From Nitrospira sp. (GTDB taxonomy: Bacteria > Nitrospirota > Nitrospiria > Nitrospirales > Nitrospiraceae): DNA of 42,208 nt. The notes beneath the pieces were generated by a model, which did not search any database, was not told the origin of the DNA, and saw nothing but the letters and a program-made list of their open reading frames with translations. A program made the position numbers and the translations under genes. Each line of letters opens with the position of its first letter. The stretch's first letter is position 1. Positions 7,572-36,887 of this stretch are shown piece by piece. The DNA is taken from assembly GCA_024998685.1 (NCBI GenBank), contig JACOEH010000041.1, forward strand, positions 1 to 42,208. Direction: 5' to 3'.

Positions 7572-8672
7572 TCAGGCATCGAGGACTTCTCTAAGATGTT
7601 TAAGGATGCTTAGTCCTACGACCTCACCTAATCGAACAGGCACGGCATTGCCAACCATACGCCCAATGGTTGCGAAGCAGTAAGTCTCCCCCGGTTTCAC
7701 GAATTCATAGTTGCGTGGGAAAGACTGGAGGATGGCTCCCTCTCGCAAGGAGATGGCGCGATGTTGTTCAGGGTGACCGAATCGTCCATTGCCAAAACCG
7801 AAGAATTGCGTTGTGATCGTAGGGGAGGGTTTGTTCCATTCCATTCGACCATAGACACTGGGGTATGTCTTGCCAGATTTAGTGCGATGACATTTGGCAA
7901 TCAATTCTTTCGGCCAGTCGCGCCATGTACCGCCAGGTTTCGATCGACGAATGCGGCGGAGATTCAACGACGATAGTCGGCTGCTGCAATGAAGTGGGTC
8001 TACTGCGAAGGCTTCACCTGCGGCGAGGGGAGGTAATTCACTCAAGACATCCTTCACACAGCAATAGCTATCTGGTTTATGCGTATGCGGTATGAGCTCG
8101 ATTGGCCCAAGTCTTGATGCCACGAGCACGAGGCGTCGTCGGTGTTGGGGAATGCCGTAATCGGGGCAGTAGACGACACGCTTTTCTTCGTCTTCGTCGA
8201 AATGAAATCCTACATCTGCAAGCGTAGCAAGAAAGTCAGCAAAAACAGAATGCCGTTGGAGCTCCGGTACATTTTCCATACTGACGATATCGGGCTTCAA
8301 TTCTCGCACTAGGCGAGCAAACTCATGTAGCAAGCTCCATTTGGTATCTGCCTTCGTATCTTGGCCCTGGGTATACCTGGAGAAGGGCTGACAGGGGGCA
8401 CAACCGACAAGGATGCGAACATGATCTTTGGGGTAGTGACTCGCGAGCGTCTCGCCGTCGAGTTCGCTAACGCTCGTAGTGATGAACCTTGTGCCCGGGT
8501 TATTGTGTTCGTAAGCATGTCGGCAGGCGTTGTCAGTATCATAGCCCGCGACAATGGAGATTCCAGCGTCAAGCAAGCCGCGGGTAAGTCCGCCCGCCCC
8601 GCAGAACAAATCTACGGCAGTCGCTATCAATGGACGACCACTCGTCCTTTTTCTTCTGAAATCTGAAGACAT
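7572..8672 (-). CDS. DNA (cytosine-5-)-methyltransferase
   Basis: A 366-residue C5 methyltransferase using S-adenosylmethionine. Motif I is DLFCGAGGLTRGLL (21-34), motif IV is the catalytic PCQPFS (Cys94), motif VI is ENVPEL (133-138), motif VIII is QHRRR (176-180), and motif X is GNAVP near residue 341. A short target-recognition region lies at about 200-290 before SPTITTQFFGFGNGRFGHPEQ. It is the first gene of a four-gene operon with DUF262, HEPN and Vsr genes. The recognition sequence cannot be read. No endonuclease of the PD-(D/E)XK or HNH type accompanies it. No strong Shine-Dalgarno sequence precedes the ATG. Confidence 0.95.
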   Translation of the reverse strand: MSSDFRRKRTSGRPLIATAVDLFCGAGGLTRGLLDAGISIVAGYDTDNACRHAYEHNNPGTRFITTSVSELDGETLASHYPKDHVRILVGCAPCQPFSRYTQGQDTKADTKWSLLHEFARLVRELKPDIVSMENVPELQRHSVFADFLATLADVGFHFDEDEEKRVVYCPDYGIPQHRRRLVLVASRLGPIELIPHTHKPDSYCCVKDVLSELPPLAAGEAFAVDPLHCSSRLSSLNLRRIRRSKPGGTWRDWPKELIAKCHRTKSGKTYPSVYGRMEWNKPSPTITTQFFGFGNGRFGHPEQHRAISLREGAILQSFPRNYEFVKPGETYCFATIGRMVGNAVPVRLGEVVGLSILKHLREVLDA

Positions 8673-8982
8673 GCTATAAGTTTACAGGCATGCTCAAATG
8701 CAGAATCCGCTTCTGACAATGTCTGCATTGGCCATAGAAGATGACAAATGAGGGCATTCTACTTTTTCGGGGTACGGCTAGTCCATGTTTTTAGGAATGA
8801 GGGTCGACCGACTTCCAGCATGCACGATACTCCTTGCTCGGCAGCGTTGACGAGCATCTCGCTCGACCGCGATCATATCGTATTGACAGCTCCTAGGTCC
8901 CAATGCTAACTTTCCGCGCTCTGCTTCGTGCCTCGCACGAACCCTTTAGGTTTGTCCAAATAACGCATGTGGATCTGGAACG
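8673..8982. promoter_or_regulatory. intergenic region with candidate promoter for the F1 ATP synthase operon
   Basis: This 310-bp gap holds no convincing gene. TTGACA at 8883-8888 followed after 18 bases by TAACTT (8907-8912) is a plausible but imperfect promoter about 70 bp before atpH. The left part probably also carries the promoter of the divergent methyltransferase operon, which could not be pinned down. Confidence 0.4.
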
Positions 8983-9522
8983 GTGATTAAGACAACAGTT
9001 GCGCGACGTTACGCTCAAGCCCTCTTCGAGCTCCTCGATCAATCAACCATCGAAGCCACGCGGGGGACGCTCAGCGGCCTTGGTCAGGCCATGAAGGAAT
9101 CAGCTCAGCTCCGTCATGTGGTGGCCTCACCTGCGTTCGGGGTGGAGGAGAAGATCGCCGTCCTGACGGCGCTCGGCGACAAGTTGGGATGCCCTCCGAC
9201 CGGTAAAGCGTTTTTGGCGCAGTTGGTGAAAAAGAATCGGGTGGGCTTTCTGCCGGAAATCGCCGACGCATTCGGCAAGTTGGTTGATGAATCAAAGCGG
9301 ACGCAGCCGGTGACGGTTTCCTCCGCGACGGATCTTCCACCGGCGGAACAGGATCGAATCAGGACAAGCCTACGCGAAACACTCAAGCGCGAAGTCGATG
9401 TGACGTTTCAGACCGATGCCGGTCACCTCGCCGGTCTGCAGATTCACATCGGCAGCACGGTGGTCGACGGCACCGTCCGAGGCCGCTTGAGCGATTTGCA
9501 AGTCCTGCTGACGCGAGAATAA
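8983..9522 (+). CDS. atpH: ATP synthase F1 subunit delta
   Basis: A 179-residue peripheral-stalk subunit that joins F1 to the b-subunit stalk (OSCP equivalent). The N-terminal VARRYAQALFELL and the C-terminal DVTFQTDAGHLAGLQIHIGSTVVDGTVRGRLSDLQ are the conserved ends of the family. Translation starts at a GTG (8983), ten bases before atpA after its stop. It is the first gene of atpH-A-G-D-C; the F0 genes (atpB, E, F) are not in the window, and upstream lies a defence operon on the other strand. Confidence 0.95.
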   Translation: MIKTTVARRYAQALFELLDQSTIEATRGTLSGLGQAMKESAQLRHVVASPAFGVEEKIAVLTALGDKLGCPPTGKAFLAQLVKKNRVGFLPEIADAFGKLVDESKRTQPVTVSSATDLPPAEQDRIRTSLRETLKREVDVTFQTDAGHLAGLQIHIGSTVVDGTVRGRLSDLQVLLTRE

Positions 9523-9531
9523 GGAGTAGCT

Positions 9532-11052
9532 ATGCAGATCAGGGCAGAAGAAATCAGTGCAATCATCAAAGAGAAGATCAAAGGCTTCGACAAACAGGTC
9601 GATGTCAAGGAGACAGGATCCGTCATTCAGGTCGGCGACGGGATCGCCAAGGTCTACGGCCTCGATGGAGCCATGGCCGGCGAGATGCTTGAATTCCCCG
9701 GTGGTCTCTACGGCATTGCGCTGAACCTCGAGGAAGACAATGTCGGCGCCGTGTTGATGGGCGACGATGTCGGTATCAAAGAAGGCGATCCGGTCAAGCG
9801 CACGGGCCGCATCGCGGAAATCCCGGTCGGCGAGGCGCTCGTCGGTCGCGTCGTGAACGCCATCGGTCAGCCGATCGACGGCAAGGGCTCGATCAAGTCG
9901 CAGCACTCCTCCCGCATCGAAGTCGTGGCGCCCGGCGTGAACACGCGCCAATCCGTTCGCGAGCCCCTGCAGACCGGCATCAAGGCCATCGATGCCATGA
10001 TCCCCATCGGCCGTGGCCAGCGCGAATTGATCATCGGCGACCGCCAGACCGGGAAGACCGCGATTGCGGTCGATACGATCATCAATCAAAAAGGTCTGAA
10101 CGTCTTCTGTATCTACGTCGCGGTCGGCCAGAAGCGCTCGACGGTCGCGCGAGTCGTGAAGACGCTCGAAGAAAATCATGCCATGGAGTACAGCATGGTG
10201 GTCTCCGCCAGCGCCAGCGACCCGGCGCCGATGCAATTCCTGGCGCCGTTCGCAGGCGCCGCGATCGGGGAGTATTTCCGCGACCACGGTAAGCATGCGC
10301 TGATCGTGTACGACGATTTGTCCAAACACGCGGTCGCCTACCGCGAGCTGTCGTTGTTGCTCCGCCGGCCGCCGGGCCGCGAAGCCTATCCTGGCGACGT
10401 GTTCTATCTCCACTCACGGTTGCTGGAACGTGCGGCCAAGCTGAACGATAAGCTGGGTGGAGGCAGTCTCACGGCGCTTCCCATCATCGAAACGCAGGCA
10501 GGCGACGTATCGGCGTACATTCCGACGAACGTCATTTCGATCACGGACGGTCAGATCTATCTGGGAAGCGATCTGTTTTATTCCGGTATCCGTCCCGCGA
10601 TTAACGTCGGTCTGTCGGTCTCCCGGGTCGGCGGATCCGCGCAGATCAAGACCATGAAACAGGTGGCCGGAACGCTCCGGTTGGACCTCGCGCAGTATCG
10701 TGAAATGGCGGCGTTCTCTCAATTCGGCAGTGAACTGGATAAAGCGACCCAGATGCAGTTGGCGCGAGGTGTGCGCATGGTGGAATTGCTCAAACAGGGC
10801 CAGTATAAACCGATGCCGGTGGCCGATCAGGTCCTCTCGATTTACGCGGGTGTCAACGGGTTCCTCGACGATGTGCCGGTGGACAGGGTGCAGCAGTTCG
10901 AGGGCGATCTGCTCCACTACATCCAGCAGAACCATCCGGAGTTGAAAAAAGAAGTCACGACCATCGGCAAGATCGACGACAAGGTCGGCGGCCGACTGAA
11001 AGAGATCATCACGACCTTCAAGCAGAAGATGGGGTACGGGGCGAAATCGTAA
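9532..11052 (+). CDS. atpA: ATP synthase F1 subunit alpha
   Basis: A 506-residue regulatory nucleotide-binding subunit of F1. The Walker A motif GDRQTGKT is at 169-176, followed by [47 protein letters not shown] (Walker B and the alpha signature region). The segment around [18 protein letters not shown] supplies the arginine finger to beta catalytic sites. Length is standard. It starts nine bases after atpH with AAGGAG upstream. Nothing is missing. Confidence 0.98.
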
Positions 11053-34408: not shown

Positions 34409-34750
34409 TCATGAGCCACGAATAATGACATGGGGACTACCAGGGTAGATACCGATTGGGCCATCCGGGGGGCCGATCGCTGCCTCGCAAGCGTACCCTG
34501 GTTCAAAGGGCCATAATAGTGAACGCCCTACAGTATTCCCTCGTATATGAACATACCGCAACGTCACACCCATGCGAGCGGCGTCTTCTTTAACCATTCC
34601 GGTACATTCACCGGGTGTATATCCCCGGCGTGAAATCAGGAGCGGCTCTCCGGAGGCGCTAAAAACGGAAAATTCACTTGCGCATCCTGTTATCAAGCAC
34701 AACACACTCATCATTCCAGTCAGTCGACTCAATCGTGTTTTTGAGCGCAT
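34409..34750 (-). CDS. small lipoprotein, unrecognised
   Basis: A 113-residue exported protein. The signal ends in a lipobox, LCLITGCASE. The mature chain (SVFSASGEPLLISRRGYTPGECTGMVKEDAARMGVTLRYVHIRGN...) has two further cysteines that could form a disulfide. No family was recognised. The Met at 34750 is the best start by signal-peptide shape, although no strong ribosome-binding site is seen. Confidence 0.6.
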   Translation of the reverse strand: MRSKTRLSRLTGMMSVLCLITGCASEFSVFSASGEPLLISRRGYTPGECTGMVKEDAARMGVTLRYVHIRGNTVGRSLLWPFEPGYACEAAIGPPDGPIGIYPGSPHVIIRGS

Positions 34751-35052
34751 GAGAACCGTCTTTTTGGAGACCTTGTGTTGATCCCAGAAACAGCTACACC
34801 AAACCATAACACGAAAGCCGACCGTCAATCGACCGGAGGAAAAGTTTTTTTCCTCGACTGTAGACGGGGGGATTCCTGCCGAAATTGCCTCCGTCTCGGC
34901 AAAAATTTCCATCCTGATATGGCGCTATACAGGCAGCATAGCCATTTGTCGCTATTTCCCGCATCCCTCTCTCTGGCACAGAAGTTGAGGGACACGATCG
35001 AGCCGTTGCTTTTGCTGAGAACAGCGTTTGGGTCGCCGGCGAGGTCCGTCCG
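34751..35052. other. 302-bp divergent promoter region with a hairpin
   Basis: GAGGAAAA (34836-34843) pairs with TTTTCCTC (34848-34855) around a GTTT loop, and TGCCGA pairs with TCGGCA further on (about 34877-34901). These may form mRNA structures ahead of the ZorA-like gene. No gene was found. Confidence 0.4.
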
Positions 35053-36267
35053 ATGGATGAATTGGATTCGTTCACCGCCTTTTGGGAATGGCTCACGCGC
35101 GACGTGGCGGTGGTCGGCGGGCTTCAGAGTCCTATGCTGAGCTGGCTCGGTGCTGCGGGTATCCTCACCCTTTGTCTTTGGCATAGCGCGGTACTCATCC
35201 GAGGTCTCTTACACATTCAACGGACCTTGTCGCGGTTCCAGTCGTCCGTCGAGCCCCTGGTCCTGGCACGGCGACAAATTTCCAAGGATTGGCTTGTCAT
35301 CCCGAGTTTGGCGAAAAGGCGGGCGCGTCTTGATGAGCCGGAAACGCGACGCGATCTTGATGATTTACAAGCGCTGGATCGTGCGGTACGGTCAGAGCAG
35401 TCTTTTGCCAGAGACTGGCTTTCATACCGCAAGACACTCGCGGTAGAGCAATCCGCCTGGTTTCTTGAGCCGACCGTCCACAGTCAGCGCTCCGCAAGCG
35501 ATTTTTTCTCATTCGAAGCGCTCTGCGCCGCCCATCTCAATGTCCGTTTTTACCGGCAGCTTCCCGCTTTCATGACGGGTATGGGTCTGATGTTTACCTT
35601 TCTTGCTATTTTAATCGGGCTCAGCAAGCTCCATGCGAACGGATCGGAGATCGACGGAATTCAAGGACTCATCAACGGGCTCTCAGGAAAGTTCGTCACA
35701 TCCATCGTCGGCTTGGCATGCGCCAATGCGTTCACTCTTCTCGAACATTCTCTCTGGTATCGGCTGGACAATCGGCACCGGGAGTGCGTTTCCCTCTTGG
35801 ACGAAATGTTTCCTCAGAAAGCCGCCGAGCAATCTCCCTCCGGTTCCTCATCGTCGAACGGACCTCCGACGACCATCGTCACTCCCGTCCAAACCGATGT
35901 CGCACACCAGCTTGTAGAGGTCGTGCAGCAGCGCCTGGGATCTACCGTCGCCGCTTTGAACTCCGCCGCACAGGCGCTCACGGCTTTGAATTCCAAACAT
36001 TCACCGACGAAGGTCGATGATTTGCCGGGGGCGATCGGCCAGGAGGTCCAGCGGGCGTTAAGGTCCCTGATGAATCCCTTGCTGGAAGCCATTCACGATC
36101 TCAACCGCTCCATTAAGGAGCAAGGCTCTCCGGTTCAGCTGTCTCAATCAGAGATCGAAACGATGCTTCATGAACTCAAGAGCAATACAGCTGCGGCAAC
36201 AGAACCTGTACGTCAGGCGAATAACGATCGTAATCCGGGAACGGCACGGAGGCCACGAAGGGAATGA
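35053..36267 (+). CDS. ZorA-like MotA/TolQ/ExbB-family motor subunit
   Basis: A 404-residue membrane protein. TM1 lies at about 30-52, then a 120-residue cytosolic loop, then TM2 (172-193, LPAFMTGMGLMFTFLAILIGLSKL) and TM3 (212-232, KFVTSIVGLACANAFTLLE). These match the stator ring subunit of the MotA/TolQ/ExbB group, with the LPxxxTGxGLxxTF signature of ZorA. A cytosolic tail of about 165 residues follows with predicted helices. The ZorB-like gene overlaps by 4 bp. No ZorC, ZorD or ZorE gene lies near. Known: ZorAB forms a proton-driven rotary motor in Zorya defence. Function here is inferred. Confidence 0.75.
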   Translation: MDELDSFTAFWEWLTRDVAVVGGLQSPMLSWLGAAGILTLCLWHSAVLIRGLLHIQRTLSRFQSSVEPLVLARRQISKDWLVIPSLAKRRARLDEPETRRDLDDLQALDRAVRSEQSFARDWLSYRKTLAVEQSAWFLEPTVHSQRSASDFFSFEALCAAHLNVRFYRQLPAFMTGMGLMFTFLAILIGLSKLHANGSEIDGIQGLINGLSGKFVTSIVGLACANAFTLLEHSLWYRLDNRHRECVSLLDEMFPQKAAEQSPSGSSSSNGPPTTIVTPVQTDVAHQLVEVVQQRLGSTVAALNSAAQALTALNSKHSPTKVDDLPGAIGQEVQRALRSLMNPLLEAIHDLNRSIKEQGSPVQLSQSEIETMLHELKSNTAAATEPVRQANNDRNPGTARRPRRE

Positions 36268-36887
36268 AGTCGATCTTTGCGCAGGACTCTCGTGACAGTT
36301 CTGCTGTGGTGACGAGCGGGGTTGCGGATCTTATGACCTCGCTCGCCGTCATCTTTATTCTCTTGCTCGTGGCCTATGTGACCCGCGTTCAAGATAAACA
36401 TGCTGATCCAGCCAGGGACCGTGTCATACCGACGGACATGGCGCCGAGCGTTGCCCCGCTACTGGAAGCCAAAAGGCCCAGCGTCCACACGATCACGGTG
36501 CCGGATGCGGCGATCACCTTTGAGTTCGGCAAGAGCAGGTTACTCCCTGCCGCCGAAACTTTCTTGTCCGAGGCCATGCCTCACTACGCATCGATCGCGT
36601 GCGGACCTACAGAGCAAGAAGTGGAGGCTTTTGTCATTGAGGGGTACACCGACGATTTGGGCGACGATATACGCAATCTGAAACTCAGTCAGGAACGCTC
36701 TTTTGCCGTACTGGCAAAAAGCCTTGAAGTGATTCGCGAGAAGCTTCCTTGGGCGTATGAATGCTTCTTGCGGAAAGCCACGGCGAACGGGCGCGGAGAA
36801 CAGAACCTCCTACGCAATGATGTCGGACAACCCGACCGCGATAAGAGCCGACGCGTCATTTTCAAGATCCACATGCGACCGGCATAG
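36264..36887 (+). CDS. ZorB-like MotB/OmpA-family motor subunit
   Basis: A 207-residue inner-membrane protein. The single membrane helix GVADLMTSLAVIFILLLVAYVT carries Asp22, the probable proton-binding residue of MotB/ZorB. Residues about 75-205 form an OmpA-like peptidoglycan-binding domain, with EGYTDDLGDDIRNLKLSQERS and DKSRRVIFKI providing the usual wall contacts. It overlaps the ZorA-like gene (ATGA) and would anchor the motor to the cell wall. A stand-alone ion-driven envelope motor is an alternative to phage defence. Confidence 0.78.
   Translation: MKSIFAQDSRDSSAVVTSGVADLMTSLAVIFILLLVAYVTRVQDKHADPARDRVIPTDMAPSVAPLLEAKRPSVHTITVPDAAITFEFGKSRLLPAAETFLSEAMPHYASIACGPTEQEVEAFVIEGYTDDLGDDIRNLKLSQERSFAVLAKSLEVIREKLPWAYECFLRKATANGRGEQNLLRNDVGQPDRDKSRRVIFKIHMRPA

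What the first reader, a model, noticed from the sequence alone, without database searches (positions are those of the whole stretch)
35053..36887. Orphan ZorA/ZorB-like motor without Zorya effectors
A MotA/TolQ-like protein with the ZorA-type LPAFMTGMGLMFTF signature and a MotB/OmpA-like partner overlap by 4 bp, but no ZorC, ZorD or ZorE neighbour exists. ZorA's cytosolic tail is about 165 residues, shorter than in known Zorya. It may be a minimal defence module, a module whose effector lies elsewhere, or an undescribed proton-driven envelope motor.
Basis: partly seen in the sequence, partly recalled or inferred. Interest (0 to 1): 0.68.

Follow-up and report, generated by a model that had tools for sequence, protein, structure and literature searches.

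The report
Stand-alone Zorya-type motor in Nitrospira
Nearly every Nitrospira genome examined carries a two-gene, ion-driven membrane motor that looks like the motor half of the Zorya anti-phage system, but without the DNA-attacking proteins that make Zorya a defence system; this suggests a defence motor that was kept for some other, still unknown, job.

Summary
Window 35053-36267 and 36264-36887 encode a ZorA-like (404 aa) and a ZorB-like (207 aa) protein overlapping by 4 bp. They match ZorA/ZorB in PADLOC, in PDB sequences and by fold, ahead of TolQ/ExbB/MotA. The own genome also has separate TolQ, ExbB-type and MotAB-type motors. All tested motor residues (ZorB Asp22, ZorA Thr182/Ser217, peptidoglycan-binding positions) are kept.

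The pair is not a fragment or a local oddity. A full-length copy is present in 69 of 79 Nitrospira genomes, and in related genera and a second family of the order. It is always only zorA-zorB, in at least seven unrelated housekeeping neighbourhoods. ZorC occurs in 3 of 79 genomes, each time in a separate, complete Zorya I locus. The core is under strong purifying selection, like its neighbours; the shortened cytosolic tail is much freer.

In rooted trees the stand-alone clade lies inside Zorya I, next to Nitrospirota loci that still have zorC-zorD (99/99 for the joint group; the alternative is disfavoured, AU p = 0.06).

Best reading: a peptidoglycan-anchored 5:2 rotary motor, derived from a Zorya I ancestor that lost its effectors, now a near-core gene pair. 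It is not a Zorya system. Its cellular role is unproven.

The parts
35053..36267 (+). zorA-like gene, 404 aa, stand-alone motor A subunit (three predicted membrane helices, short cytosolic tail)
   Evidence: PADLOC ZorA1 PDLC00598 5.4e-21; PDB 8vvn 2.8e-10; AlphaFold model pLDDT 69 with best matches ZorA Z 17
35134..35202 (+). first membrane helix (residues 28-50)
   Evidence: helix 28-80 in the model; invariant P27, S30, G33
35437..35484 (+). beta hairpin in the cytosolic loop (strands 129-132 and 141-144), the insert described as specific to Zorya-type A subunits
   Evidence: PMC12505986 Fig 4 legend
35542..35760 (+). motor core: membrane helices 2 and 3 with Thr182 and Ser217 (aligned with Thr147/Ser184 of 729-aa ZorA1)
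   Evidence: alignment; T182, T216 and S217 invariant in 22 relatives
35821..35892 (+). predicted disordered linker between core and tail (residues 257-280)
   Evidence: pLDDT about 32 for residues 261-280; low conservation 0.51-0.53
35893..36192 (+). short cytosolic coiled-coil tail (residues 281-380)
   Evidence: three helices in the model; 3.5-3.75 residue hydrophobic period, 5-7 times shuffled, over 65 relatives
36264..36887 (+). zorB-like gene, 207 aa, motor B subunit with one membrane helix and OmpA-like peptidoglycan-binding domain
   Evidence: PADLOC ZorB1 PDLC00609 1.1e-33; Pfam OmpA 5.2e-8
36327..36329 (+). codon of Asp22, the ion-carrying aspartate
   Evidence: invariant in GxxDLMTSLA in 21 relatives; aligned with ZorB1 Asp26
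36477..36878 (+). OmpA-like peptidoglycan-binding domain (residues 72-205); Asn138, Leu141, Arg145, Arg196 and Arg197 kept

Best explanation
The two genes make a stand-alone, ion-driven 5:2 membrane motor of the ZorAB type. Two ZorB subunits are tied to peptidoglycan by their OmpA domains and pass one helix with Asp22 through a ring of five ZorA subunits; ion flow past Asp22 and the Thr182/Ser217 ring turns the ring and its short cytosolic coiled-coil tail. The lineage comes from a Zorya I system that lost zorC-zorD and most of the ZorA rod, and the pair is now retained as a near-core, single-copy unit in Nitrospiraceae. Most likely it serves the cell envelope (sensing or acting on the wall, or signalling wall state to the cytoplasm) rather than cutting phage DNA. 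Shown here: family, residues, distribution, missing effectors, selection, tree. Inferred: 5:2 assembly, rotation, ion type, envelope role.
For: Family and fold. Direct comparison: ZorA of the Nitrospira Zorya I locus L117 matches at 6e-34 and its ZorB at 9e-28; the genome's own TolQ, MotA and ExbB do not match. Motor residues. Distribution: full-length zorB partner in 69 of 79 genus genomes; 67 of 295 phylum genomes with the stand-alone zorA. Two-gene unit with no constant neighbour. Neighbours ordinary. ZorC in 3 of 79, only in complete Zorya loci. Selection: dN/dS of the core 0.09-0.14 and ZorB 0.12-0.22, like KsgA, PdxA and LarC on the same locus, with similar dS. Tree: stand-alone rows plus L117/L144/L119/L206 form a group 99/99; rooted inside Zorya. 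Decay in place in one genome, at the same position next to ksgA (L120).
Against: No functional data. The root is uncertain: a tree with all Zorya on one side is disfavoured but not rejected (AU p 0.061 and 0.119), and the stand-alone clade itself has 88/88 to 94/91. Deep splits conflict with rpoB: the G021/G024/G025/G029/G067 copies group with another genus and family (100/99), so the pair has moved between lineages at least once. The pair evolves much faster than rpoB. An unknown trans effector cannot be excluded.
Confidence: 0.6

Rival explanations
1. It is still an anti-phage device. The motor senses envelope damage during phage entry and triggers a response through an effector encoded elsewhere, or by ion leakage alone.
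For: Closest relatives are Zorya I loci with zorC-zorD. The ion path and peptidoglycan-binding residues are intact. The tail and its tip vary quickly. At least one lateral move.
Against: No ZorC in 76 of 79 genomes. The general SNF2 helicase is not co-distributed (complete genome G021 has the pair without it). ZorAB alone are reported insufficient for defence (PMC8565338), and the ZorA tail is needed in Zorya (PMC11890865). Near-core distribution; none found on plasmids or phages as a stand-alone pair.
Confidence: 0.25
2. Stand-alone ZorAB is the older state: a housekeeping motor from which Zorya systems arose by gaining zorC-zorD and a longer rod.
For: The tree with all Zorya together is not rejected (AU p 0.061 and 0.119). 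Broad presence within Nitrospiraceae.
Against: With TolQ/ExbB/MotA as outgroup the stand-alone clade nests inside Zorya I and its sisters carry zorC-zorD; found so far only in one phylum, while Zorya is spread over many.
Confidence: 0.12
3. A remnant of a Zorya locus without present function.
For: Effectors lost, tail shortened; one genome shows decay in place.
Against: dN/dS near 0.1 in the core and intact frames in about 69 of 79 genomes; invariant motor residues.
Confidence: 0.03

Closest known systems
Zorya type I anti-phage system (ZorA1, ZorB1, ZorC, ZorD; PDB 8qyd, 8vvn)
   Same: A subunit with three membrane helices, Zorya-type beta hairpin, Thr/Ser ring; B subunit with Asp in DLMTxL and OmpA domain; gene order zorA-zorB; fold match Z 17
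   Different: No zorC or zorD; tail about 150-165 residues instead of several hundred; near-core instead of patchy; housekeeping neighbourhoods; scores below NCBIfam cut-offs (51 bits against 100)
Divergent Zorya I loci of Nitrospirota (L117, L118, L119, L206)
   Same: Closest relatives in the tree (99/99 group); shared sequence such as GLINGL(A/S)GKF and DLMTSLAVIFILLL
   Different: ZorA of 609-703 aa and adjacent zorC-zorD
Zorya type II (ZorE) and type III (ZorF, ZorG)
   Same: ZorAB motor
   Different: No ZorE hit or DUF3348 hit in the genus, both without a positive control; hardly any match to ZorB3 (0.013)
TolQR, ExbBD, MotAB
   Same: General 5:2 motor fold
   Different: All three types are present separately in the same genome (L001-L003); no pairwise similarity for the A subunit; no PF01618 match

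Membership tests
ZorAB-type 5:2 motor | ZorA-type A subunit by profile and fold, ahead of TolQ/ExbB/MotA | tested here: met
ZorAB-type 5:2 motor | beta hairpin in the cytosolic loop | tested here: met
   model strands 129-132 and 141-144; criterion from PMC12505986; model of medium confidence
ZorAB-type 5:2 motor | ion-path residues (ZorB Asp, ZorA Thr/Ser ring) and peptidoglycan-binding residues | tested here: met
ZorAB-type 5:2 motor | 5:2 assembly and ion-driven rotation | not testable with these tools
   needs multimer prediction or cryo-EM
Zorya anti-phage system | effector genes zorC and zorD, or zorE, next to zorAB | tested here: not met
   absent beside the pair in the window and in every neighbourhood read; ZorC in only 3 of 79 genus genomes, elsewhere
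Zorya anti-phage system | long cytosolic ZorA rod | tested here: not met
   whole protein 384-460 aa in 65 relatives against 609-816 in type I rows; a short coiled coil is kept
Zorya anti-phage system | patchy, mobile distribution in defence regions | tested here: not met
   69 of 79 genus genomes; ordinary neighbours; no stand-alone pair found on plasmids or phages
Zorya anti-phage system | protects against phage | not testable with these tools
   needs a plating assay
Zorya type III | ZorF (DUF3348) and ZorG (DUF2894) | tested here: inconclusive
   no DUF3348 in 76 genomes but no positive control rang; DUF2894 not searched
TolQ/ExbB/MotA housekeeping motors | PF01618 match or closer similarity to these than to ZorA | tested here: not met

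The most novel reading that the evidence does not exclude
A phage-defence motor was domesticated: after losing its DNA-degrading partners and most of its rod, Zorya's ZorAB became a near-core envelope-to-cytoplasm motor of Nitrospira, a fourth ion-driven 5:2 motor beside MotAB, TolQR and ExbBD with a function of its own.
Probability: 0.35. Interest if true: 0.75.

Novelty: new variant of a known kind. Interest (0 to 1): 0.56.

Why it matters
Zorya has been described as a case of cellular motor machinery taken up for defence (PMC11890865). Here the evidence points the other way, from a defence motor to a conserved stand-alone one. The pair also gives a natural 'motor only' version of Zorya, useful for asking what ZorAB does without nucleases and how much of the ZorA rod is needed. 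Nitrospira are nitrite oxidisers (some complete ammonia oxidisers) of wide environmental importance, and the gene pair is in nearly all genomes examined. Automatic defence annotation may count such pairs as partial Zorya.

Tried and rejected
Effector elsewhere: ZorC not in G000; ZorD profile finds only a general SNF2 helicase of about 1216 aa matching residues 703-1032 of the profile, absent from complete genome G021 that has the pair, so not an obligatory partner; ZorE and ZorF searches empty but without a positive control. Constant neighbour: none; the ksgA-side neighbourhood is shared by many Nitrospira, others differ. Lytic transglycosylase, mechanosensitive channel and AsmA-like genes flank some copies, but not consistently. 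The mad2 PADLOC hit of KsgA is read as a methyltransferase cross-match. Basic or aromatic C-terminal tip: clade-specific, 46 of 65 with net positive last 30 residues, not uniform. Ion type: Thr-Ser at 216-217 occurs in types I and II alike, so not decided. Viral contigs gave one Zorya I locus, no stand-alone pair. Strict vertical descent: rejected for deep splits. The Nature 2025 Zorya structure paper is not held. Stand-alone pairs outside Nitrospirota could not be searched properly: the only genome-collection scan returned close relatives.

Full report
Observation. The window holds two overlapping genes, 35053-36267 (404 aa) and 36264-36887 (207 aa), sharing ATGA. The start of the first agrees with its relatives. 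Pfam sees only OmpA in the second and no MotA_ExbB in the first, but PADLOC gives ZorA1 5.4e-21 and ZorB1 1.1e-33. NCBIfam ZorA models match well below their cut-offs (51 bits against 100). The window belongs to a 4.8-Mb genome, G000; the named records most like it are Nitrospira metagenome assemblies (72-95% identity in ZorA).

Family. In PDB sequences the best hits are ZorA 8vvn (2.8e-10) and ZorB 8vvi (2e-4). An AlphaFold model of the A subunit (mean pLDDT 69, motor core mostly 80-94) finds ZorA first (Foldseek 1.2e-7; VIA Z about 17, rmsd 4.5-7.6 A over 228-237 residues), then TolQ/ExbB at Z 10-11. The model has two strands, 129-132 and 141-144, in the cytosolic loop, where a beta sheet is described as particular to Zorya-type A subunits (PMC12505986). 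The genome has separate TolQ, ExbB-type and MotAB-type genes (L001-L003), none similar to the A subunit by BLASTP, whereas ZorA of a Nitrospira Zorya I locus matches at 6e-34. So it is a fourth motor and not one of the usual ones in disguise.

Anatomy. The ion-carrying Asp of ZorB is Asp22; Thr182 and Ser217 of ZorA align with Thr147 and Ser184 of the 729-aa ZorA1; Asn138, Leu141 and Arg145 and the Arg196-Arg197 pair of the OmpA domain align with conserved ZorB positions. All of these are invariant or nearly so in 21-22 relatives. The functions of the Asp, the peptidoglycan-binding residues and the tail are known from mutants of real Zorya (PMC11890865). The numbering 147/184 and its role in ion flow are from my own knowledge of the E. 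coli structure paper, which is not held. After the core comes a predicted disordered linker (257-280) and a short helical tail with a strong 3.5-3.75 residue hydrophobic period. Whole-protein length is 384-460 aa in 65 relatives and 609-816 aa in type I rows.

Distribution and neighbourhood. A full-length ZorB partner is in 69 of 79 genus genomes; of the rest, two have pieces (G329 partial, G246 cut at a contig end beside ksgA), G020 has a copy with stops at the same place between the small lipoprotein gene and ksgA, and G322 has only a complete Zorya locus. In the phylum sample 69 of 295 genomes matched the ZorA profile, of which G282 and G265 are complete Zorya loci; the others lie in Nitrospiraceae genera g1, g12, g14 and g17 and in family f3 genera g9 and g11. 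In all loci read, the unit is zorA-zorB and nothing else. Neighbours fall into at least seven unrelated sets: GGDEF regulator and ksgA-pdxA as in the window; murein transglycosylase and DEAD helicase; mechanosensitive channel; HflX-type GTPase and DUF748; cytochrome peroxidase; pterin synthase; EamA transporter; and alcohol dehydrogenase.

Missing effectors. ZorC (EH_Signature) is found in 3 of 79 genus genomes (G322, G333, G342), each within a complete zorA-zorB-zorC-zorD locus with a longer ZorA; G333, G342 and also G374 of another genus carry such a locus in addition to the stand-alone pair. The ZorD profile finds complete ZorD in G342 and G322, and in the own genome only the helicase part of a general SNF2 protein. 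No ZorE or DUF3348 was seen, without positive controls.

Selection and descent. On the shared ksgA locus, dN/dS is 0.09-0.14 for the ZorA core and 0.12-0.22 for ZorB, similar to KsgA, PdxA and LarC, with similar dS, while the ZorA tail is at 0.23-0.59. Against rpoB in 35 genomes, 21 of 32 splits are shared; shallow groups agree, but one Nitrospira subgroup's copies join genus g14 and family f3 with 100/99 support, which means at least one lateral move. The pair is thus persistent rather than strictly vertical.

Origin. With TolQ/ExbB/MotA as outgroup, the stand-alone rows form a clade (94/91 on ZorA; 88/88 on ZorA+ZorB) together with Nitrospirota-type Zorya I loci (95/94; 99/99), inside the rest of Zorya. 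Since near and far relatives carry zorC-zorD, loss of effectors is the simpler story. A tree with all Zorya on one side is disfavoured but not rejected (AU p 0.119 on ZorA, 0.061 on both), and long branches are in play.

Mechanism and verdict. I take it as a peptidoglycan-anchored, ion-driven 5:2 motor with a short cytosolic coiled coil. Family, residues, distribution, selection and lack of effectors are shown; assembly, rotation, ion and function are inferred. Against a pure defence role stand the near-core distribution and published statements that ZorAB alone are not sufficient (PMC8565338); for it stand ancestry and intact sensing parts. It is not a Zorya system, since two tested defining features (effectors, long rod) are not met, but it works like the ZorAB motor. 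Literature searches found no description of it, within a library that lacks most subscription papers.

Noticed in passing
L117 4412-11840, L118 2981-10418, L119 769-7850, L206 8661-16295: A divergent branch of Zorya I in Nitrospirota: ZorA 609-703 aa, short ZorC (446-523 aa) and ZorD about 1060-1163 aa; ZorC of L119 is not recognised by the NCBIfam ZorC model.
   Followed up: partly
L120 (G020) 8400-10220: The stand-alone pair has decayed in place between the small lipoprotein gene and ksgA, with stops in zorB.
   Followed up: partly
L144 1166-15193: An IMG/VR contig with what looks like Cas9, Cas1 and Cas2 genes next to a complete Zorya I locus; it looks like a bacterial defence region rather than a virus.
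   Followed up: no
G000:C42:48277-49221: A SNF2 helicase of about 1216 aa with counterparts in roughly half of the Nitrospira genomes searched.
   Followed up: no
L031, L028, L126, L122, L057 ZorA C-termini: The last 20-30 residues of stand-alone ZorA form clade-specific short basic and often Trp-containing peptides (such as RRFWPKRS, LRWFANWRQG, GWRLSRLWP), possibly partner-binding or membrane-binding tips.
   Followed up: partly
window 34409-34912: Small predicted lipoprotein gene on the minus strand (mature start probably near 34747), a regular neighbour in the ksgA-linked lineages, without any family match.
   Followed up: no
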